A model generated the notes under the pieces. The model was given only the letters and a program-made list of their open reading frames with translations. It had not been told where the DNA came from and searched no databases. Of a stretch of DNA of 64,000 bases, positions 22,801 to 42,300 are shown in pieces. Every line of letters starts with the position of its first letter. The first letter of the stretch is position 1. The DNA is from Tubiluchus corallicola (Eukaryota > Priapulida > Priapulimorpha > Priapulimorphida > Tubiluchidae): contig JAQGDQ010000149.1 of assembly GCA_030141605.1 (NCBI GenBank), positions 124,001 to 188,000 on the forward strand. The letters run 5' to 3'. A program made the translations under genes and the position numbers.

Positions 22801-25800
22801 AGAATCTCAAGTTTATGACTTTATCATAAACAGCAGTTTAGTTAGTATAATTAGTTTCCCAACAGGCATCTAACGATGAGGAATAACCTTCTAAATGCAA
22901 CGGAGTAATAAATGCAGAGCAAAATGCTCACATATGGCTATCATAAAAAACTAAACTAAATACAAAAGACATTGTATAGGCTTACCATTCGTTTCAAATT
23001 ATTGTTAAGATCAGTAAAACATCATCCATTGCTACTCAACGAAGGCTGTAAGAATTGAGTACTCGAATGATTACAGTGGAGTTCACACTCAAGTGGTCTT
23101 GTGCATAGGTTAGTCGTAAAGGGCTTTTGACCTCCTACATTCGATAATTGCTCTGTATGGTTTCATTTATCGTACTGAGTCTGGCTGTTTACCTTGCAAC
23201 GAGAGAATGTATTCGCATCCGAACGTGGCTAAGACACCTCTGCTATTTTATCTTAGAAAGATATCCTTGATATTGAACCTGCTCCAGTCATTCCATAAAC
23301 GTCAGCATTGTGTAGGCTTCCCACAATTGTGCCTTGGATTTTGGCTTGTGGCGGATCACTACAACATCTTTATGACCCGGGCGACTGATAGGACCGTGGA
23401 AATGATAATGTTGGTGTTCGAGAAAAGAAGTGGTACTCTCGTGTGTTAGATGTTAGTTGCCACAAGGCAATTCTTGGCAAAGAATTGGCAAAAATGGACT
23501 ACTTGTCTTTTTGGTGACATGTCATTGCCACATATCTGATGAAAGAAGTTCCAGAAAATGCCAGAAATGTATTATAACTTGCACATTAATTGTGTCACGG
23601 TTTTGCATTCATATGTTTATTTGATACCCTAGAAGAATAAAGTAAATGAAATACCAACTAAAAAAAGTTTTAATGTGAAACCTCTAGTTTCTTTGCACTG
23701 TAAGAAGTAAAGTCATATACATACCAAGCCACCATATATATACCAATTTGCGTTTACTTAACCATTTGAAACGAGTGGAAAAACAATTCGTTTGTGACCT
23801 GACGTTCGTAAAGAAATAGGCGGGTATCACAGAGATTTCGCTGTCCTATCCAAAAAACTCGTTAATACCATTAGCAAGTATGAAATTGAAAAGACAGTGC
23901 ACTACCGTCAAACCATGCACCTATCATTGTATCCATTGTGCCAGATAACTTGTGTATGACTCAATTAGCAGACAAAGCTTTGCAGTTAGGCACTTATAGC
24001 AACTTCAGTGCATCTAGCCAGGCATTGATTAAACCAATAAAGTCCTGCAACATAAAGTTTGGAAAGTTCAGTGAGCTAATACATAATGTGCCAGTGCCCG
24101 CTGATTCCTTCATTATGAATGTTGTAAGATGTCTGATTTTCTGGAAGAAACACTCTATGACTGTGTGACTCTGCTAGACAAGCGGTTGAAAAGAAACCTT
24201 GTATACCGTCAACCACTGGAGACAGATGGAAAAATCCGTAGTCGGGCCGAAAGTCAACCACCTGTCTCTGACTTTAAACTGTATTTTGAACAGCTTCTTA
24301 ACAACAGTAAAGCAGACAATAACCTAGAGCCACTGGTAGATGATCACAATATGTACATGCCTGTGTTGGATAATCCCTTTAATCATTATGAACTAGTGAA
24401 TGTTATCGATAAGCAGAATGCGAGCAAAGTGGCTGGTCCTGATGCAATACAGACGTACTGGTTTAAATACTTACCCCCTGATTGGATTTCAGTCTTCTTG
24501 CATATTTTGAATAGTGTTCTTACAAGGTCCATTCCCAGAAATATGACGACCTTCTATAAACTCTCATATTATATAAGAAGGGCAATGCTGCAGATTGCAA
24601 AAACTTCAGAGGAATTATAATAGTCCATTCAATGTGTAAACTATACGATAGCCTTATAAGCGAAAGATTAAAACTGTGGATCACACCTGATGCAGAACAA
24701 GCCGGAACTCAATGTGGGAGAGGCTGTTCTGAACAGATACTAGCATTAAGACTTCCTATAGATGCTGCTGCCGTATCCAAGAAAAAAATTTTCATCTTAT
24801 TCGTTAACTTTGAAAAAGCCTATGACAAGGTAGACCGAGCGATAATGATTAGACTGTTAAAGAAGGATGGGTATGGAACGACCATGCTAAAAGCCATTGC
24901 TAGAATGTACAATACCACCAGTAATATTATTGGAAATTAATCCTTCTGTTATAGATGTGGCACAAAGCAGGGGTCCTCCAGCTCCTATCTTCTGTTTTTC
25001 GTCTACATAAATCCGCTCATTCGAGCTGTGAAAGCAACTGGCAATGCTGACTAGTTAAGAAGCTTTCATGGATTCCTATATATGGATGATACGGCTATAT
25101 TGGCTTCAGACCCAGCAGAAATGCATGAAAAAGATGGATGCGCTAATTGATTTCTGTTGTGATTATGGAATGTCGATAAATTCACTAAAAATCAAGTTTA
25201 TAGTAGTAAATGGTAATGAAAGAAATGGTCATACATCACACGCCACTACACTTATTTGATACTATATATGCAGACCAAAAAAGGTCCTTTTCATCAAGCA
25301 CATGGAAGATATACAGCCTCATTTCTTCAAATATCATGCGTTTATTAGGAAGAACTATGGCTTTCCTTACTGGGTCAAGAAAAAGCTCTAGATTATGCAC
25401 TTCTGGAAGGTGCCTTCTATAGCACGAAATTCAGATGCAGATCTTACAATTCCACGCACCATATATCTTAAATTGATCAAATCGCTACTGTCAGCGCGCA
25501 CCAGTACTTGTAACGATTTAGTTCTGATCGAATCTGGGTACCCTTGTTTTAAGACGTGGTAAAAGCTTGTCAAATAAAACTGTGGTGAATGCTGAAAAAC
25601 ACTCGCCTGTGATGAACGCGTTAAACATAGCATCTTCATGTAATGAAAAACTGGCCAGGTATTTAAGCCATTTATTGAACGGCGATATCCAAGAGTTCAT
25701 TACCACAAAAATCGAAAGTTATTGAGATCTGTAGCGGAGAGCAACTCATCGAAGCATGTTAACTTATAAAATTTTTAATCCCTCCTTGGATTCCCCTGCA

Positions 25801-28800: not shown

Positions 28801-31800
28801 TTGCATAATTTCAATATGGCGACACTATAAAGTTTCAAGCTGACTGTACTACAACCTTTTTTTTCTAGTTCACTTTAGACCCTCTAAATATACATGTATA
28901 AGTGTTTGGTTACATGGTACGTGATACATGATACACAAACAAAATACATGAACACTGCTGTTCAATACAAGAATGGAAGAAATGAAATTTTGAAAAGAAA
29001 AACTATATTCAAAAACCAACAACTACATAAAGTTATAACAGTGTATAATATAGTTGAAATCAAAGTTGTGATTCAGACCCAGTTTTGAAACTTCACTTCT
29101 GGTGGAGCATCGAGATATGTATCATTTTTGTATCATTTAACTACCAGCTGTCATGTATCATTCTTTCTCATATTGACTTCTTTATCAGCCGTCATGTATC
29201 ATTTTTCTCATATTGGCCCTACTAATATAGGAGTATAGTTTACAGTATAGGAGTAAAAATCTTACTGTGGAAATGTCCTTTAGTTGCTGTGCTTAAGTTT
29301 GAACTAATCTGCCCTCCACAAATTGTGTGCTATTGAATCTCACTGCTCATTACTTGATACATTTAAAATTGTAAAGAAGTTAGTTTTATTCAGTTTTTGC
29401 ATTTTTTCATTTCACCTTTATCTTCTTTAGAATTTGGCGTATCATGAAGTCACTATATGTATTCATTCATTCTATTCTACACCTCTAGAGATACCTGGAT
29501 TTTAGAAACCTCTTTTTACATGTTGCAAACATAAGTATTTCCCTACATACAAAAAATGAAAAACTGATTTAAAGTTACCACACTACAATTACTGAGTTTG
29601 TAAGGGAAGTATTTGTGCAGTGTTAACCACACCACATGTGCTTATTTAGCAAAGTCCATTTAACACCAATCACCCACTATCGGGCCTCAATAAAAGCTGC
29701 TGTTCAGGCTCAAACAGTATAAATGCTGCAGAAAAATTGTTTTAAAATACCAGCATTTACCAATGTTGTTCACAGTGGTGGGCGATACCACCAATTTCAA
29801 GTAACTGTGATTACCAATTACTTTAAGGTAGTAATCGATTAATCAGTTACTGAGATTGCTCATTGCTATCCATTTCCCACCTGGGTGGGTTACAAACCTG
29901 TGCTACCAGTGCGTGCTAATGCTCAGCTGAAATCATATGCACGGTTTGTGTTTGAGAGTGTTTACATCTGTAACATACCCGTGTTAAAAGTTATTTCAAA
30001 TGCATTTTGCATCTTCATATTTCAAACTGCATTATGAACTCAGTAACGCAACTTTATTTGTTTACTATTCGATTAATTAGCAAAGTAATTGATACTAGAG
30101 ACTTACGCTCAAGTAATCGATTACTAGTAGTCGATTACACCCACCTCTAGATGTAAGTTGACAAATTGTTTGGCACACTAAATTTTCTGTGCATTTTTCA
30201 GCTGATTCTGCAAATGATCCAGAGAAGAAGTTTACAGAAGAGGACTGGGCTGATGCTGAGAAAGCTGAGACTTATACAAAAAGCAAAATACTAGCAGAAA
30301 AAGCAGCCTGGGATTATATAAAAGAACTTCCCGGTGAATTGGGCTTAATAAATACAATAATTAGTGGGATTAAGTTCTCTAAAACATGAAAATTTCGCAA
30401 AGAGCATTCTGTCTGCCTATCCATAGATCTGTCCATCCATCCGTCCTTCCATCCAGCCATCTGTCATTAATGAAACTGTTCACTCATTTTTTGAGGTGGC
30501 ATGATACACTATTATTTTTTCCACTTGTATTTTTTATATATCGTAGCACAATTTATACTTTAAATTTTTATTTGCAAATAAAAACGAGGCCTTGCGTAAA
30601 GTGGTTAAGTAATAAGTGCAGTAATTTTGTCATATTCAATTTGCAAAGATTACTTTTGATTTACAGTTTTCTAGCAACAATGTTTTAGTTTCAATAAATG
30701 GCACAATATATGTAATATTTCTTTTGACGTCAAGGAACATTTTTGGTAATTATAAGAGGAAATCAATATTCTTTGTGGGTAGTGTCCTATTTCTTGTGAG
30801 TTTGCTTACAATGTTTTCTATAATGCAGATGAAGAAAAATTTGAACTAGTGGTATTGAATCCTGCATTTGTTATGGGTCCTGTACTGAATGGCTCACAAT
30901 GTACAAGTGCATTTATCATTAAGCGCCTGTTAGAGCGTTCAATGCCTGCTGTACCAAGACTGAATTTTCCCGTTGTTGATGTACGTGATGTAGCAGCAGC
31001 CCACGTCAGAGCAGTCACTTCTTGTGAAGCTGTTGGTATGCTTCTTTTTTTTATTATAACCGCAGAGGGTGGGTGTAGTAGGGATTTAAAATATTATCTC
31101 TGTTCTTCCTCACTCGGAAGTGTTGATGATAGAACTGAAAATGTAATTCTTATTGATCGAAGATATTCTAGCTTTTTCAAAGTGAATGCTTTGTTATTAT
31201 TAAACAAAACATTTTATTTTGTTCTGATCAGCCAGTTTTGGTCACACAGGTTTACAGTATAAATCTGTATTTATACTAACTTGTATATGTATGAATTTTC
31301 CCGTTGTTGATGTACGTGACGTAGCAGCAGCCCATGTCAGAGCAGTCACTTCTTGTGAAGCTGTTGGTATGCTTCTTTTTTTTATTATAACTGCAGAGGG
31401 TGGGTGTAGTGGGGATTTAAAATATTATCTCTGTTCTTCCTCACTCGGAAGTGTTGATGATAGAACTGAAAATGTAATTCTTATTGATCGCAGATATTCT
31501 ACGTTTTTCAAAGTGAATGCTTTGTTATTATTAAACAAAACATTTTATTTTGTTCTGATCAGCCAGTTTTGGTCACACAGGTTTACAGTATAAATCTGTA
31601 TTTATACTAACCTGTATATGTATGAATTTTCCCGTTGTTGATGTACGTGATGTAGCAGCAGCCCATGTCAGAGCAGTCACTTCTTGTGAAGCTGTTGGTA
31701 TGCTTCTTTTTTTTATTATAACTGCAGAGGGTGGGTGTAGTGGGGATTTAAAATATTATCTCTGTTCTTCCTCACTCAGAAGTGTTGATGATAGAACTGA

Positions 31801-34800
31801 AAATGTAATTCTTATTGATCGCAGATATTCTAGCTTTTTCAAAGTGAATGCTTTGTTATTATTAAACAAAACATTTTATTTTGTTCTGATCAGCCAGTTT
31901 TGGTCACACAGGTTTACAGTATAAATCTGTATTTATACTAACCTGTATATGTATGAATTTTCCCGTTGTTGATGTACGTGATGTAGCAGCAGCCCATGTC
32001 AGAGCAGTCACTTCTTGTGAAGCTGTTGGTATGCTTCTTTTTTTTATTATAACTGCAGAGGGTGGGTGTAGTGGGGATTTAAAATATTATCTCTGTTCTT
32101 CCTCACTCGGAAGTGTTGATGATAGAACTGAAAATGTAATTCTTATTGATCGCAGATATTCTACGTTTTTCAAAGTGAATGCTTTGTTATTATTAAACAA
32201 AACATTTTATTTTGTTCTGATCAGCCAGTTTTGGTCACACAGGTTTACAGTATAAATCTGTATTTATACTAACCTGTATATGTATGAATTTTCCCGTTGT
32301 TGATGTACGTGATGTAGCAGCAGCCCATGTCAGAGCAGTCACTTCTTGTGAAGCTGTTGGTATGCTTCTTTTTTTTATTATAACTGCAGAGGGTGGGTGT
32401 AGTGGGGATTTAAAATATTATCTCTGTTCTTCCTCACTCAGAAGTGTTGATGATAGAACTGAAAATGTAATTCTTATTGATCGCAGATATTCTAGCTTTT
32501 TCAAAGTGAATGCTTTGTTATTATTAAACAAAACATTTTATTTTGTTCTGATCAGCCAGTTTTGGTCACACAGGTTTACAGTATAAATCTGTATTTATAC
32601 TAACCTGTATATGTATGAATTTTCCCGTTGTTGATGTACGTGATGTAGCAGCAGCCCATGTCAGAGCAGTCACTTCTTGTGAAGCTGTTGGTATGCTTCT
32701 TTTTTTTATTATAACTGCAGAGGGTGGGTGTAGTGGGGATTTAAAATATTATCTCTGTTCTTCCTCACTCAGAAGTGTTGATGATAGAACTGAAAATGTA
32801 ATTCTTATTGATCGAAGATATTCTAGCTTTTTCAAAGTGAATGCTTTGTTATTATTAAACAAAGCATTTTATTTTGTTCTGATCAGCCTGTTTTGGTCAC
32901 ACAGGTTTACAGTATAAATCTGTATTTATACTAACCTGTATTTGTATTTGTACTTGTACCTATATTTGTACTAACTATAATTTTGTATTTTTTGGAGGGG
33001 GGTGGAATGTAGTCTATTATTAATTTCTGCAGAAATCAACTGACCCATTAAATTTTGTTAAAATTAGTGACTGATTAATGATTGATCTTGATATTGTGGC
33101 ACTCATTAATTGTTGATTGATTGATTATCAGTTTTCGGTAAATTTAGTAATTTTTATCATGCTCTTATAACTACTTGGTTAAGAAAACAAATGATCAGTT
33201 TTTAAACAACTGATTGTATTGGACTAACGTTTTGTTTGTGCTCAGAACAACATTGCTTGGGAATTTTTAGTGTAAATTGGATGACACTAATTACAACATT
33301 ACAACATTAAAAGCATATTTGCAGGTAATCGGCACATATTGTATGCTGAAAGTGTTTGGATGAAGGATATGGCAGCTGCTCTGGCAAAGGAGTTTCGACC
33401 TCAAGGCTATAATGTGCCCACTGCTAACTGTCCGTATTTTGCTATGTGGCTGTACAGCTTGTTTGATCGTAATCTCAAACAGATGCTGCCAAAAGTTGGT
33501 AAAGAAGTCAAGCTTGACAACACCAGGGTATTTAAGCATTCTGTAATTTATATTCTAGTAATTGATAACAATTTGTTTGCTGTGAACAGTAAAGTTTATT
33601 TTTGATAAAGTTGTTTGAGAATGGGATGTGTTGTTAAAGGATAAACGTTTGACCTACATCTCATTAGTTTTTTATTATACTTTTAGTGTCGGCATAAACT
33701 TGATAATTGGTCAATTGCAAATTGTTTAGTTTATTCACAGATTTGTGGTCAATGTTCTCTTTTTATTGCTTAGATGAAAGAGGTGTTTAAAATAGAAGAT
33801 CGTGAGATAAATTCTACATTTATTGACATGGCTTATTCGCTTATTGATTCTGGCATCGTAAAAAAACCAAAGCCAAAGAAGCAAAAACCAGTGAAGGAAG
33901 ATAAATCAAATGGCGAAACAAAGAAAGAGGAGAAAGAAGATGGTGGGACATTTTTTATATAGTATATAGTCAAAATGATTTTCAAAAGTACTACTTAAAG
34001 CATATAACCCTTTGCTGTTATCCAAACTAAAGTCATTGATGTGATGACGGGTAACAGGTAATTTCAAGAGAGGATCGAAGCAACACTTAAACAAAATCTT
34101 AAGACGGCTGTCTTGTAAGCTTTGGGCCAGTCTGTGGATTAGCATTGGATGCTTGTTAAATATTGTTGTGTCATTATATATCTTTAACCTTTTAGGATAC
34201 ATAATTTTAACAAATACATTAGTTTTAATGCACACAGTTGTCTAAAATTGTTTCTAATCTTTCAGCTTGAAAATAAATTTCTGTTTATTTCTTTGAGATC
34301 TTGCTTTATGTGAGAAAGGGCTTTCACCTTAAATCTAAATTGAATTACCTTAGAGAATTATAACACTAATAATTAATATTAATAAGATTTTGCTACTGTT
34401 TTTCATTGAGTTATTTATTATTAAGATTTTTCATTGAACTAGGGTCACCAAACTCACAGGATTGGTAGCCCTGAGCGGGAGATGTACAACAGTGTGGTGA
34501 CCACTTACCACTGGTCAAGGGGAAGGGTAGTGGCTATCGGTCAGTTTTCTTTACAATGCATCGCCTCCTAGAGCTTTCGGTTTTTTCCAATTTTTTTTTC
34601 ACAAGTATTTGGGCTCTGAGGAGCAGGTGTGCACCTACGGTTTTAAAACAACGAGCTTTAAATGCCCGAAGGAGGGGCCAAAATGCAAAATTTGGGTCCC
34701 CCAATTGGTAACCTTTTACATGCTGAGGGCTAGGGACATAAAACTAACAGGGTACACTCTCTGGGCAAAGTTATCTACATATACATGTGACCGGAGTTGC

Positions 34801-36266
34801 CAGGTCAAAAGTCACGGAGCGGGCGAGTCTCATTTATTTTTCTTTATGGTCCATCTGCTCCCACATTTGTTGAGCTAGGATAGCAATGTTTGGTATGTTG
34901 CAAGGTGGTGTCGTGGCCTTGCACGTCACAAAATAAGGGATGCGCGCATATAGCAAAATGTTCCGCTAGGAAGCAAAAACCGAAAAAGGGGGGTCAAGAA
35001 CAGAAGTGAACAGAGTGTTGAGCAATGGTACCTTGTAGCATACCAAATGAAAGGTCTTGATGAGACAAATTGAATGGTGTAAATTATGCCAAGACTGGTT
35101 AATGTCTGACCTCAGTAGGGGGCAAAAACCAAAAAATGGTGGTCGGGAACAGAAGTGCTGACTGTTCATGGCTGATATCTGTCATTGAATATGCTGTATC
35201 TACTTTAACCACAGATTGCTAATGTCACAATTGGTAATTCTAAATTACAAAATAGTTAATCCCTCTGGAATTTGTTGAAAATTTAGATCAATGTCAAGTA
35301 TTTTTTGTCATTTTTATGCAGATTTAATTGAATTTCAACATAGTTGCAATGATCAATGTCTAAATATTTAATTTTTTTAGTAGCAGAGAAGGTAGAAGAA
35401 GTTGCAACAGCTGCTACTGAGGAAGTAGCTGACAAGTCAGCACCAACTGCCAGTGCAGAGGACATAAAAGAGGTACTGTAATGTAGAAACTGTCTATAAG
35501 TTTATCTATGTCCATTTATACTATTTGTTTTTTTTTCATTAGACCAGATAGAGAAAAAAATATTTCATGATTAATTGGAAAACTTGTGCTTGCAATGATT
35601 AGAACTATGTAATAATTATTTATTTGGACTGTCACATTTGTGCAAGAAGGAAGTAGGGTAGATATGCTTCATAAATGATTTCATGCAGACATTTTATCTC
35701 AGCAGGAAATTAACATACACAAAAAGAGCTGAAAACCATGCATATATGATTACTTAGTAGAGCTTGTTGCGCAATGAAGAAAAAAATTTACTCATGTCAT
35801 GGAGAGTCTCTTGCATATCGTTCTTTCAGTAAAACACTACTCTTCCAATTTTTTGCTGTTTTTCATTTTCATTAGTTTTCTTTTCTCTTTAATGTGGGAA
35901 TTTGTAAAATGTAGCCTGAGTTCATGTTGATGTTACTGTTTATTTCTATTAATGAACTAGGAATGCAAAGAGGAAAAAAGTGAGGTGGTGAAATCCGAAA
36001 TTTCCGTTGAAGAGAATAAGGTGGAAACAAAAACCGAAGTGAGAACTGTCATTGAAAAAAGCGTGGTGACAGTTACGGAGCAAATAGTGGAGTTGCAATC
36101 AGATGGAAACACAGAGGACAAAGTTGAGAAAATGATAGAGGAGAAAGTTGATAGTTTGGTAGAAAAATTGACCGATGAGCAGAAGGAAGAAGGAGGTGAG
36201 CAAAAGGAAGAAGGTGAAAAGGATGGAAATGTAGAGGAAAAGAAAGAAGAAACTGGTAGTGAGTGA
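16872..36266 (+). CDS. Dihydroflavonol-4-reductase-like extended SDR with a charged C-terminal tail, ten exons, 512 aa
   Basis: Exons: 16872-16908 (exon 1B), 21435-21547, 22147-22235, 28369-28559, 30202-30333, 30829-31035, 33325-33527, 33774-33942, 35381-35472 and 35961-36266. Phases agree at every junction and total 513 codons. Residues 13-25 form the Rossmann motif [13 protein letters not shown], with Ala24 where many SDRs have a third Gly. The catalytic set is Ser137-139 (TSSSA) and Tyr168-Lys172 (YTKSK). NPAFVMGP and [17 protein letters not shown] are typical of the DFR/anthocyanidin-reductase/3-beta-HSD-like group, so an NAD(P)H-dependent carbonyl reductase is expected; the substrate is unknown. 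The enzyme domain ends near residue 350. About 160 Lys/Glu-rich residues follow, encoded by exons 8-10, an addition not usual in the family. The exon 8 donor (GTGGGA) is weak. A candidate poly(A) signal AATAAA is at 36659. Alternative exon 1A would give 506 aa. Confidence 0.92.
16958..17010 (-). repeat. Possible tRNA-derived fragment just after exon 1B
   Basis: On the minus strand GTGGCGCAACTGTCTGAGTG followed by CTGGACTTTCCATCTA resembles a tRNA D-arm and anticodon arm. No convincing B box follows, so only a SINE or tRNA fragment is suggested. Confidence 0.3.
17340..17480 (+). repeat. Dispersed repeat family R2, single unit
   Basis: Contains CATTCGATTCGTCTCATCGA followed by GACCCTTCATTTGATAT, then a TTTTGGTTTTTGTCCCC block, matching the R2 units at 14.7-14.9 kb and, inverted, at 35.0 kb. 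Confidence 0.6.
17628..18144 (+). mobile_element. hAT-like non-autonomous element (MITE), 517 bp
   Basis: The left end CAGTGGCGGCTCGTG pairs with the right end, whose reverse complement reads CAGTGGTGTCTCGTAG. The flanks are an imperfect 8-bp duplication, GGTGAGGG before and GGTGATTG after (6 of 8 match). CAGTGG ends and 8-bp duplications are typical of hAT elements. The interior has no transposase. It lies in the long first intron of the reductase, about 0.7 kb after exon 1B. Confidence 0.65.
18145..21434 (+). other. Reductase intron 1, remaining part
   Basis: AT-rich intronic sequence without a recognisable gene. A short CATA microsatellite is near 19160. Nothing else could be supported. 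Confidence 0.6.
23200..26320 (+). mobile_element. Decayed non-LTR (LINE) retrotransposon in reductase intron 3
   Basis: A reverse-transcriptase ORF broken by stops and frameshifts. Pieces in order: a linker region from about 23938 to 24440 with [19 protein letters not shown] (RT motif 1-2 region); the [13 protein letters not shown] region around 24575, one frame from the preceding piece; 24632-24940 with [19 protein letters not shown] and [13 protein letters not shown] (RT motif A region); the YMDD catalytic box at about 25085; a C-terminal zinc-knuckle-like segment [17 protein letters not shown] near 25900-25960. The 3' end probably lies near 26320 after AATAAATTACTACTGCTACT. The 5' boundary is uncertain and the clade was not assigned. 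It is in the same orientation as the host gene and is not functional. Confidence 0.85.
26321..28368 (+). other. Reductase intron 3, 3' part
   Basis: AT-rich intron without recognisable genes or elements, ending at the acceptor TTCTAG before exon 4. Confidence 0.6.
29100..29220 (+). repeat. Short tandem repeat with TGTATCATT units
   Basis: ATGTATCATTTTTGTATCAT, then two roughly 55-bp units containing CAGC-GTCATGTATCATT and TTCTCATATTG. Small local duplication in reductase intron 4. Confidence 0.55.
29773..30149 (+). mobile_element. hAT-like MITE in reductase intron 4, about 377 bp
   Basis: The left end is CAGTGGTGGGCGATACCACC. The right end, read inverted, is TAGAGGTGGGTGTAATCGAC. Both arms carry repeated TAATCGATTA-type blocks that form further internal inverted repeats. 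CAGNGGTGGG termini are common in hAT-type MITEs. The 8-bp flanks match poorly, so the exact ends are uncertain. It ends only about 50 bp before the acceptor of exon 5. Confidence 0.6.
30962..32947 (+). repeat. Six-copy 331-bp tandem array spanning the exon 6 donor
   Basis: Copies start at 30962, 31293, 31624, 31955, 32286 and 32617. Each begins with the last 74 bp of exon 6 ([17 protein letters not shown] codons plus the donor GTATGC) followed by 257 bp of intron 6. Copies are almost identical. Diagnostic differences (CTCGGAAG or CTCAGAAG; TCTACGTT or TCTAGCTT) show copies 1 and 3 alike and copies 2 and 4 alike, so a two-unit block was itself duplicated. Only copy 0 lies in the main reading frame; the others sit in the intron and duplicate donor sites without an obvious new acceptor. 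Confidence 0.97.
34436..34700 (+). repeat. Dispersed repeat family R1, copy 2 (reductase intron 8)
   Basis: GGTAGCCCTGAGCGGGAGAT, GCCTCCTAGAGCTTTCGGTT and TTTTTTTCACAAGTATTTGG match in order the blocks at 13.7-14.0 kb. Confidence 0.65.
34966..35169 (-). repeat. Dispersed repeat family R2, two inverted units (reductase intron 8)
   Basis: Two units with a spacing of about 149 bp share GCAAAAACC-AAAAA-GG and GAACAGAAGTG. The segment ATGAAAGGTCTTGATGAGAC is the reverse complement of the block found at 14.7 and 17.35 kb. Confidence 0.6.
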
Positions 36267-39362: not shown

Positions 39363-42300
39363 ATGTCTAAGTTGACGAAAAGGAAACACGTGGTGAATGA
39401 AGTTATGAATGAATATGTGCTTCCACAGCACAATCAATCAATAGTAAAGGTAATTTTTATTTTAGTTGTCAAGTGTTATGTATTTAAGTTAATAATATCT
39501 TTCAGGCCACTGTCAACCCTTTCTATCACTAGCGAATTAATTATATGAATTTTGTTTCTCTAGATATCATTTGTATTCATGTCTTCTCTGTCTTACTGTG
39601 CTTCCTTGACCCTTGGGTGTACATAATGTTGTGTTGATTAGTCGTGTCGGATTGCTGCTCTGGATTTTTTTTCTCATAAAGATAACAAATCTTGATAACA
39701 AATCTACTAGAATGAACGTTGAGATTCGAAATTATAATAGTAATGTAATAAGGCATTGCAGTAAAATCTTAAAGCATAATCTTAAGTTTGACTTCATGTG
39801 ATCAACAAGAATAAGCCATTTACAAGGTTTAAAAGAAGAGCAGTACTAAAACTGCGAATTCAGTCGAAAGCTCCCTGTTTTACCATTTCACCTGTCATTC
39901 ATGGTGGAGCTTGAAAACGAAAATTTTAGCGATGCCGAACCCTACTTTGCGGATTATACTGATCATAATGATGAACTTTCAGCAGCAAATTTGAGGGCCA
40001 GAAGTAATTCTTGAATCATGAAAAGTAGCAACCTTGTCATACTAATGGGGGAAAGGGATATGCCCACAGAGACTTACTCTCTGCAAATAATTATATATAT
40101 ATTTACCCCCCTTCTCTCATCCCCAATCCCAACCCTGCTCGTAGAGGACAGCACTATACAATAAATAAGTGTCAGTGTGCGCACTGCTGTTACACTCCCC
40201 CTCTAAAATGCGAGCTCACAGAGCATTTTAGCAAATATATTCTAACAAGCAATTAGTTAGCATCTTCTAGAAGAAAGAGCTTGTGTATGGGGTGCTCTAA
40301 AAAGCAGCCTTCACTTTGTGTAGCACTTCTCACTAACCCGTCTTCACCTGCATGAACTTTTTCCACCTTGCCCAGTGGCCACAGATTTCTGGGTGTAGTG
40401 ACTTTCACAAGCACCACATCATCAAGTTTGAAATTTCTTTTTGGCACAGTCCACTTGTTCTGCCGCTGTAAGGATGGCAAATACTCTCTGGTCCATCTGC
40501 TCCAAAAGATATTCACTAAGTGCTGAATGTGTCGCCACTTGCGTCTGCCTCGATCAGACTCAGAAAATACTCCTTGAGGCAGTAAGGCGGCATTGTGAGC
40601 CAGAACCAGATGATTTGATGTCAATGGTTGTGCATCTTTCGGATCATCTGAAACCGGAGTTAACAGCCTACCATTAATTATTGCATTCTGTTAAACAGAA
40701 TACAGTGGATAATCCTTCATCATCAAGAGTCTGTCCATCTAAAAGGTGGACCATTATTCTTCTGATTGACCTTATCTTCCTTTCCCAACAATCTCCCACG
40801 TTGGTGGATTATATTCCCACTCTATATTACGTTGCTGTAGCTGATTAGCGACGTTCTGATGGTTTCAGCCTAGCATGGCTCTTTGAAGCTCCCTGTCTGC
40901 TCCAACTGTTCGTCCCATGGTCCATTCTGGTAACATTTGATTTTCCCCTCTTGTTAATAAATCAGAAGAGGGCATTAACAAAGCTATCAGTGGTCCTGTC
41001 AAAAAGAACTTCTAAATGAATGGGTTGTACCCCCATGCATGTAAATAAACATCTATATCTCTTAGTAGACATGTGCTTTCTCTTTACCCACAAGGGGCCA
41101 AAACGGTCGACCCCATTGAGGAGAACAGTGAATCTCTTGAGACCCTATCACTGGGTAAGTCTGCCATCTTTTGGCCCAGCGTGAGTGCTGAGCAAAACTC
41201 TGCACCTGTGGCAGTCCCTTATAACCTTTCTTGTGCCAGTTCTCAGTCTAATAATCCAGAACTTGCCTCTGGCTACAGACATAGTGTAATTGCATACAGC
41301 ACGGCAGTGGTAGTGTCGGGCAACTAAGCAAGAAAGAACATAGTCTTTTGGCAGTAATACTGGGTGCTTAGCTTGCTTAGCTAACGGAGCTTTGTTTAGT
41401 CTGCCTCCAACTATGTCTTTATCTGATTTCTGAGGGTCCAATTGATACAAATGACGAGTACATTCTGTCCGTGAGCTCTTCTTTGAAATGTATATGCTGT
41501 ACATTGGGAGTAAGGTTCATCCCAGCATAAGTTTCTTCCTTCTAACTGGTTGTTGCTGCAAGGTCATCTGCGCCTCATTCTTTTCAATATTGAATGGTTG
41601 CTCGCTGAACGGTGAAGCTACATTTACTACATTTGTTATGTTGCATGGTTGTGTGACTGGCTGCTCATAGTGAAGCTGGTTACTAGGACTGCCCGCAAAA
41701 GTGTTGCTTGTAGAAGAATAATTCTTCAAGGGTTAAACAGTTTTTCCTGCCGATTATTGTCTCTTCAGGTAATGATTTATTGTCCAAAATTACACGACTG
41801 TAATTTTGGACACGGCCACACGACCATGTTTCTCTGGTATCTGGCCTCCTCATCATCCATCATCGTGTCTCTCGTAACACTGATATAACAAAATAGATTT
41901 GTTCGCAAATAATGATAGAATATTGAAGTGGACGACAGCCAAGGGGGAAGAGCCGATAATAAACTGTTATGTACAGAAACGCCTTCACTATTTTATTTAT
42001 GTTCCAAAGGCATTTATTCTAAAGAGAATAATAAAGAGAACATTAACAAGTAAGAAAAATAAAGAGAATCATAAATGGAAGCTTAATAAGCAAGAAGAAG
42101 GTAACCTGTTGGTCAAACTACTTTCATAAATTCACAGATCGAATTCATAAACTTTAACTAAATTATTTAAATACATGTAGCTTACATCGTTGGCTCTTCA
42201 TCAAGATGTAGAAGATCATCAAAGTACAAATTTTTGTAATAACTAAAACGCTGTTGTTAACTAACACAATAATGAGAGAAAAAACATTGGTGTGAACAAG

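What the first reader, a model, noticed from the sequence alone, without database searches (positions are those of the whole stretch)
30962..32947. Tandem array that multiplies an exon's 3' end and its splice donor six times
Six near-identical 331-bp copies each carry the last 74 bp of reductase exon 6 plus the GTATGC donor and 257 bp of intron. The coding part stays intact in every copy. Because 331 is not a multiple of three, and read-through of copy 0 meets a stop at 31260, use of any downstream donor would give a truncated product. The locus could therefore work as a copy-number-dependent splice competitor or decoy, or simply be a young satellite. Each copy also holds TACTAAC, a strong branch-site word, just before the exon segment.
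Basis: partly seen in the sequence, partly recalled or inferred. Interest (0 to 1): 0.75.

Follow-up and report, generated by a model that had tools for sequence, protein, structure and literature searches.

The report
Exon end copied six times tandemly
In an animal-like genome, a 331-base piece holding the end of one exon of a reductase gene and the start of the following intron is repeated six times; it looks like a young repeat array, probably spliced out as ordinary intron, that could also serve as raw material for new exons.

Summary
Six 331-bp copies at 30962-32947, without indels, each hold the last 74 nt of exon 6 of an apparently single-copy DFR/GRE2-like reductase, its donor TTG|GTATGC and 257 nt of intron. 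The unit was found at one place only in the 343.5-Mb genome. Copies 2 and 4 are identical and copies 1 and 3 differ at one base, so a two-unit (662-bp) block was copied: growth by repeated tandem duplication or unequal exchange. Reading through from exon 6 to any of the five extra donors meets the stop at 31260. But copies can also act as cassette exons: an acceptor-like site in a copy's intron part plus the next copy's donor gives five potential 117-nt exons, in phase, stop-free, encoding the same 39 residues. A stronger acceptor exists only in copies 2, 4 and 5; from copies 2 and 4 it gives a stop-bearing 249-nt exon. TACTAAC is near chance frequency in the window. No RNA could be examined, so use of any extra site is unknown. 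Most likely splicing still joins 31035 to 33325 and the array is a young intronic minisatellite. It mirrors the published potato case of intron gain by tandem duplication.

The parts
30829..31035 (+). reductase exon 6 (207 nt, ends in phase 1); its last 74 nt (30962-31035) belong to copy 0
   Evidence: open spliced frame and alignment to DFR/GRE2-like structures
30962..31292 (+). copy 0: real exon end, donor at 31035|31036, 257 nt of intron
31293..31623 (+). copy 1 (1 difference from copy 3)
31624..31954 (+). copy 2 (identical to copy 4)
31955..32285 (+). copy 3
32286..32616 (+). copy 4
32617..32947 (+). copy 5: last copy, donor at 32690|32691, runs into single-copy intron
31260..31262 (+). 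first in-frame stop if exon 6 is read through donor 0
31250..31366 (+). first of five potential 117-nt cassette exons (acceptor CACACAG| of copy 0, donor of copy 1); the others lie at +331, +662, +993 and +1324. Open, phase 1-1, identical 39-aa product. Prediction only
31780..32028 (+). potential 249-nt exon carrying a stop, from the strong acceptor CTTCCTCACTCAG| of copy 2 to the donor of copy 3; repeated at 32442-32690. The AG is GG in copies 0, 1 and 3. Prediction only
33325..33527 (+). reductase exon 7

Best explanation
A young intronic minisatellite that happens to start inside an exon. A tandem duplication with one breakpoint in exon 6 and the other in intron 6 doubled a 331-bp piece. 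Further duplication or unequal exchange, the last event probably of a two-unit block, raised it to six (the block copying is shown by the pattern of differences; the order of events is inferred). Splicing most likely still joins donor 0 (31035) to 33325, since only donor 0 makes an exon of normal length with exon 6's own acceptor (207 nt, against 538 to 1862 nt for donors 1 to 5) and gives the conserved reductase sequence. The other five donors are then passengers that are spliced out, perhaps with low-level cassette inclusion as noise (inferred).
For: Copies 98% alike without indels; copies 2=4, copies 1 and 3 differ at 1 base; the outer copies 0 and 5 have the largest summed distances to the others, 35 and 31 against 17 to 25 (from the matrix). 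Exon and intron parts vary alike: 2 of 74 against 10 of 257 columns, Fisher p=1.0, so no extra conservation of the exon pieces is seen. One place in the genome. Exon lengths per donor. The protein matches DFR/GRE2-like structures across the junction. Other long-period arrays occur in this genome: 12 merged arrays (period 60 or more, 80% matches or more) in 232.8 kb examined, 10 of them in 52.5 kb of contigs under 200 kb and 2, this one included, in 180.3 kb of longer ones.
Against: In-unit acceptor-like sites outscore the real exon 7 acceptor (3.3 and 6.0 against -0.8) and most of 18 benchmark acceptors, and the intron part holds more such sites, and more open in-frame cassettes, than most of its shuffles, so silence of the copies cannot be assumed. 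Published work reports that SRSF1 favours the intron-proximal of competing donors (PMC5585400, passages), which would favour donor 5. In long contigs such arrays are rare. No RNA evidence either way.
Confidence: 0.62

Rival explanations
1. Exon birth: the duplicated exon ends are used as cassette exons. The acceptor in copy k's intron part pairs with the donor of copy k+1, adding 39 residues (or 45, or 12 to 14) per included copy without breaking the frame, so array length sets the range of reductase isoforms.
For: Five potential 117-nt exons, all open, phase 1-1, with an identical 39-aa product; the only 2 substitutions among them are synonymous. The acceptor at unit position 288 scores 3.3, above 17 of 18 benchmark acceptors. 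The donor is the gene's own. Shuffled intron parts give at least one open cassette in 6-14% of 3000 at acceptor cut-offs of -1 to 1, and two, as observed, in 0.2-2%.
Against: The shuffle tests were set up after the sites were seen. Of the acceptor-like sites scoring 0 or more in the intron part, those at unit 104, 201 and 274, and the strong one at 156, give a stop. Two of two synonymous has about 0.11 chance for transitions. Acceptor weights are generic, recalled human-like values. The insertion would duplicate part of a conserved enzyme domain. No RNA.
Confidence: 0.2
2. Splice decoy or competitor: identical extra donors, and in copies 2 and 4 a strong acceptor that makes a stop-bearing 249-nt exon, draw off spliceosome parts and lower productive mRNA in a copy-number-dependent way.
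For: Identical donor in six copies. The acceptor at unit 156 scores 6.0, above 18 of 18 benchmark acceptors; sites this strong number 7 in about 126 kb of both strands outside the array, 0.06 per kb. Decoy exons are reported mostly in longer retained introns, with several competing splice sites; OGT's carries a stop (PMC12017769 and PMC8706089, passages).
Against: The donor is weak to average: 4.9, with 6 of 17 other benchmark donors lower and one tied. Decoy function needs shown intron retention. The strong acceptor is present in only 3 of 6 copies, as drift would give.
Confidence: 0.12
3. The array is real but the copy number is wrong: an assembly error duplicated the 662-bp block (copies 1-2 as 3-4).
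For: Copies 2 and 4 are identical and copies 1 and 3 differ at one base.
Against: No indels, even in the run of eight T of each copy; no N in the window or in 138.4 kb of sampled sequence, which suits a long-read assembly (inferred); four clearly distinct unit types point to at least four real copies.
Confidence: 0.1

Closest known systems
Intron gain by tandem duplication across an intron-exon boundary, potato RdRp gene (PMC4974935; abstract and passages seen)
   Same: A tandem duplication crosses a splice boundary, so that a copy inherits real splice signals and can become a new exon with a new intron
   Different: There the duplication carries the 3' splice site and a cryptic donor was recruited; the authors report a new intron. 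Here five extra copies carry the 5' splice site and would have to recruit a cryptic acceptor; no transcript data
Fission-yeast genes with multiple tandem copies of a 24-bp AGGT-bearing exon segment (told in PMC4974935, passage)
   Same: Several tandem copies of an exonic piece, with an intron lying across copies
   Different: Short exonic unit; no exon-intron boundary in the unit; EST support there, none here
Rogers model: tandem duplication of an AGGT-bearing exon segment (PMC3443670; passages seen)
   Same: Duplicated exonic sequence supplies potential splice sites; latent sites may add coding sequence
   Different: The duplicated piece reaches into the intron, and the donor is TTG|GT, not AG|GT
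Decoy exons in retained introns, such as OGT (PMC12017769; passages seen)
   Same: Several competing splice sites and stop-bearing pseudo-exons within a longer intron
   Different: OGT's decoy is a regulatory element shown by experiment; here only sequence resemblance
Minisatellite / tandem array
   Same: Head-to-tail near-identical units with edge divergence and block copying
   Different: 331 bp is a long unit, and the start of the first copy is coding

Membership tests
Minisatellite-type tandem array | head-to-tail near-identical units | tested here: met
Minisatellite-type tandem array | sign of growth by copying of unit blocks | tested here: met
   copies 2=4, copies 1 and 3 differ at 1 base
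Minisatellite-type tandem array | copy number varies between individuals | not testable with these tools
   one assembly only
Tandem-duplication intron gain | duplication includes exonic sequence and a splice signal | tested here: met
   74 nt of exon 6 plus its donor in each copy
Tandem-duplication intron gain | a usable opposite splice site lies between copies | tested here: inconclusive
   acceptor-like sites at unit 270, 288 and, in 3 copies, 156; scores only
Tandem-duplication intron gain | the new intron is actually spliced | not testable with these tools
   no RNA data
Tandem exon duplication (whole-exon cassettes) | complete exon with its own acceptor is duplicated | tested here: not met
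   only 74 of 207 nt; exon 6's acceptor is outside the unit
Decoy exon | promotes intron retention | not testable with these tools
   no RNA data
Transposable element array | unit found elsewhere in the genome | tested here: not met
   6 matches, one place (that search skips very common words)

The most novel reading that the evidence does not exclude
A multi-copy, copy-number-variable cassette generator: duplication of an exon's 3' end with its donor has created five in-frame, identical 39-residue exons-in-waiting plus two copy-specific stop-bearing exons. One expandable array then tunes both the isoform length and the amount of a reductase, a natural series for watching exon birth.
Probability: 0.12. 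Interest if true: 0.75.

Novelty: new variant of a known kind. Interest (0 to 1): 0.42.

Why it matters
Intron gain by tandem duplication has been described for exon-internal duplications, also in several copies, and, in the potato case, for one crossing a 3' boundary. Here a 5' boundary is crossed, with five extra copies that share the donor and nearly all of the exon context. The copies differ naturally at one base that makes or breaks a strong acceptor. If length varies in the population, the effect of donor number and acceptor presence on splicing could be read directly from RNA of different individuals. If nothing but 31035-33325 is used, it is a clean example of exon definition overriding five identical downstream donors.

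Tried and rejected
Considered and rejected: transposon or dispersed repeat (unit found at one place); a second gene copy or pseudogene (11 matches: ten are the gene's own exons and array copies, one is a distant 28% match elsewhere; the query ran from exon 3 to exon 8); whole-exon duplication (acceptor not in the unit); TACTAAC as the intron's branch site; purifying selection on the copied exon pieces (no difference from intron).

Led nowhere: relatives in genome contigs and viral contigs (51 and 22 pattern matches, none confirmed as a relative); phage records (no near match); Rfam at gathering scores and tRNA scan of the window (none); the organism was not identified (one paper search on genome size gave 0 papers). 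Paper searches for arrays holding a splice donor (9, 6, 2, 4, 1 and 0 papers listed): apart from the potato paper no title or abstract start described such a case, and of these lists only the two papers cited (PMC4974935, PMC3443670) were opened. Six narrow word searches of open-licence papers do not show that none is in print.

Limits: splice-site scores use approximate human-like weights that I recalled. The benchmark is 18 introns: 12 of 18 myosin exon pairs tried (8 without slack; 6 could not be resolved and were dropped; where candidates competed the best-scoring one was kept) and 6 of this gene. One row (donor 33528) was off by one base and was replaced. Exon coordinates were wrong by one or two bases and were corrected; the protein sent ends in one residue (G) that the final model lacks. 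The shuffle tests were designed after the sites had been seen.

Full report
The observation. TRF reports an array at 30961-32947, period 331, 6.0 copies, 98% matches and no indels. In the register 30962 + 331n there are 12 variable columns of 331 and 0 to 8 differences between copies. The first 74 nt of each unit are the end of exon 6; the next 257 nt are intron. Exon 6 is 30829-31035. Exon 7 is 33325-33527. The spliced frame from 28369 to the stop at 36264-36266 is open. The protein belongs with dihydroflavonol-reductase/GRE2-like enzymes: Pfam 3Beta_HSD, Epimerase and NAD_binding_4, all over their cut-offs; 36 solved-structure sequences matched, the best at 2.5e-27 and 1.2e-26. Of the two alignments shown, the best crosses the exon 6/7 junction without a gap and the second with a one-residue gap, which makes 31035 the ancestral donor. 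The gene appears single-copy: besides its own exons and array copies, only one distant 28% match was found. The 5' exons upstream of 28369 were not located.

How it arose. The unit was found at one place in 343.5 Mb. Copies 2 and 4 are identical, copies 1 and 3 differ at one base, while copies 1 and 2 differ at four; so a two-unit block of 662 bp was copied. Copy 0 alone differs at columns 43, 100, 119 and 320, copy 5 alone at 248, 273 and 326. The outermost copies having the largest summed distances is what unequal exchange would give, but with seven private sites it is only consistent; the largest single distance, 8, is also that of copy 1 from copy 0 and from copy 5. The exon and intron parts vary alike (2 of 74 against 10 of 257 columns, p=1.0). 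Long-period arrays occur elsewhere in this genome, mostly in small contigs: in 232.8 kb examined (19 fetched stretches plus the window) there were 12 merged arrays of period 60 or more and 80% matches or more, 10 of them in 52.5 kb of contigs shorter than 200 kb and 2, this one included, in 180.3 kb of longer ones. Five of the 19 stretches were chosen for myosin genes and four lie beside the window on its contig, so this is not a random sample.

What the copies could do in splicing. Read-through of exon 6 to donors 1-5 gives the stop at 31260 in all five cases. Taking an acceptor in copy k and the donor in copy k+1, the site CACACAG| at unit 288 gives 117 nt and the site GATCAG| at unit 270 gives 135 nt. 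Both are open and in phase in all five positions; the other sites of the intron part that score 0 or more (units 104, 156, 201, 274) run into stops. The five 117-nt products are the same 39 residues, with two synonymous differences in the DNA. AGs inside the exon piece would give 42, 39 or 36 nt, also in frame, while one more (26 nt) shifts the frame. Unit 156 is CTTCCTCACTCAG| in copies 2, 4 and 5 but reads CGG in copies 0, 1 and 3. It is the best-scoring acceptor of the unit and, from copies 2 and 4, leads to a 249-nt exon with an early stop. By a generic score, unit 288 (3.3) exceeds 17 of 18 benchmark acceptors, unit 270 (2.7) exceeds 13 of 18, unit 156 (6.0) exceeds 18 of 18, and the real exon 7 acceptor scores -0.8. 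The exon-internal AGs for 42, 39 and 36 nt score -2.8 to -1.8. The gene's donor TTG|GTATGC scores 4.9; a stronger-looking AGG|GTGGGT lies 33 nt downstream in the unit (9.5), in frame with exon 6, but the best-matching relative has no insertion there.

How surprising this is. Dinucleotide shuffles of the intron part of copies 0 and 2 have at least one open in-frame cassette in 6-14% of 3000 at acceptor cut-offs of -1 to 1, and in 2-3% at 2.5; two open ones, as observed, in 0.2-2% at cut-offs of -1 to 1 and in 0 of 3000 at 2.5. These tests were made after the fact and with recalled weights; I count them as a hint. TACTAAC is near chance in the window, and lies inside the 117-nt cassette, not upstream of its acceptor (unit position 313).

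Most likely mechanism. Donor 0 is the only donor that gives an exon of normal size with exon 6's own acceptor: 207 nt against 538, 869, 1200, 1531 and 1862 nt. Under exon definition (established knowledge, not tested here) donor 0 should win and the array leave with the intron. Against this, in published human work SRSF1 favours the intron-proximal of two competing donors (PMC5585400, passages), there only 11 nt apart. Decoy exons in retained introns show that non-productive sites can hold back splicing (PMC12017769, PMC8706089, passages). Which of these applies cannot be decided from DNA.

Place among known things. The potato RdRp case (PMC4974935, abstract and passages) is the closest: a tandem duplication across a 3' splice boundary that made a new intron. 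This array is its mirror image at a 5' boundary and in several copies. The same paper tells of fission-yeast genes with several tandem copies of a 24-bp exon segment and an intron across them. The Rogers AGGT model (PMC3443670, passages) covers exon-internal duplications. I file the array as minisatellite-type by test; as tandem-duplication intron gain it is only a candidate, because the spliced product cannot be tested here.

Noticed in passing
window 33860-36266: The reductase continues after its enzyme domain into a long Lys/Glu-rich tail over three exons ([15 protein letters not shown]... to ...[10 protein letters not shown]). The Pfam matches end before it (which held only its first part); the last exon alone gives only a sub-threshold Mre11_DNA_bind match, 0.0078.
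   Followed up: partly
window 24560-24937 (+): Reverse-transcriptase relic, RVT_1 at 1.3e-06, just below Pfam's cut-off; the neighbouring open stretch 24105-24617 matched nothing.
   Followed up: partly
window 40256-40690 (-): DUF5641 domain at 1.5e-24, which I recall as typical of Bel/Pao-type retroelement polyproteins.
   Followed up: partly
window 31068|31069 and +331n: The unit holds a consensus-like donor AGG|GTGGGT 33 nt downstream of the real one, in frame with exon 6; its use would add 11 residues.
   Followed up: partly
L022, L023, L025, L029, L030: Five sampled stretches of contigs under 200 kb hold ten minisatellite arrays with units of 65-276 bp, 87-99% matches.
   Followed up: no
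G000:C1359:110374-111194: Two matches to nearly the same part of the myosin head model (28-88 and 27-84) lie about 640 bp apart on one strand, perhaps alternative myosin exons.
   Followed up: no
G000:C917:20400-23919 and 90660-94210: Two myosin genes with equal best match scores lie on opposite strands of one contig: a recent inverted duplication or an assembly effect.
   Followed up: no
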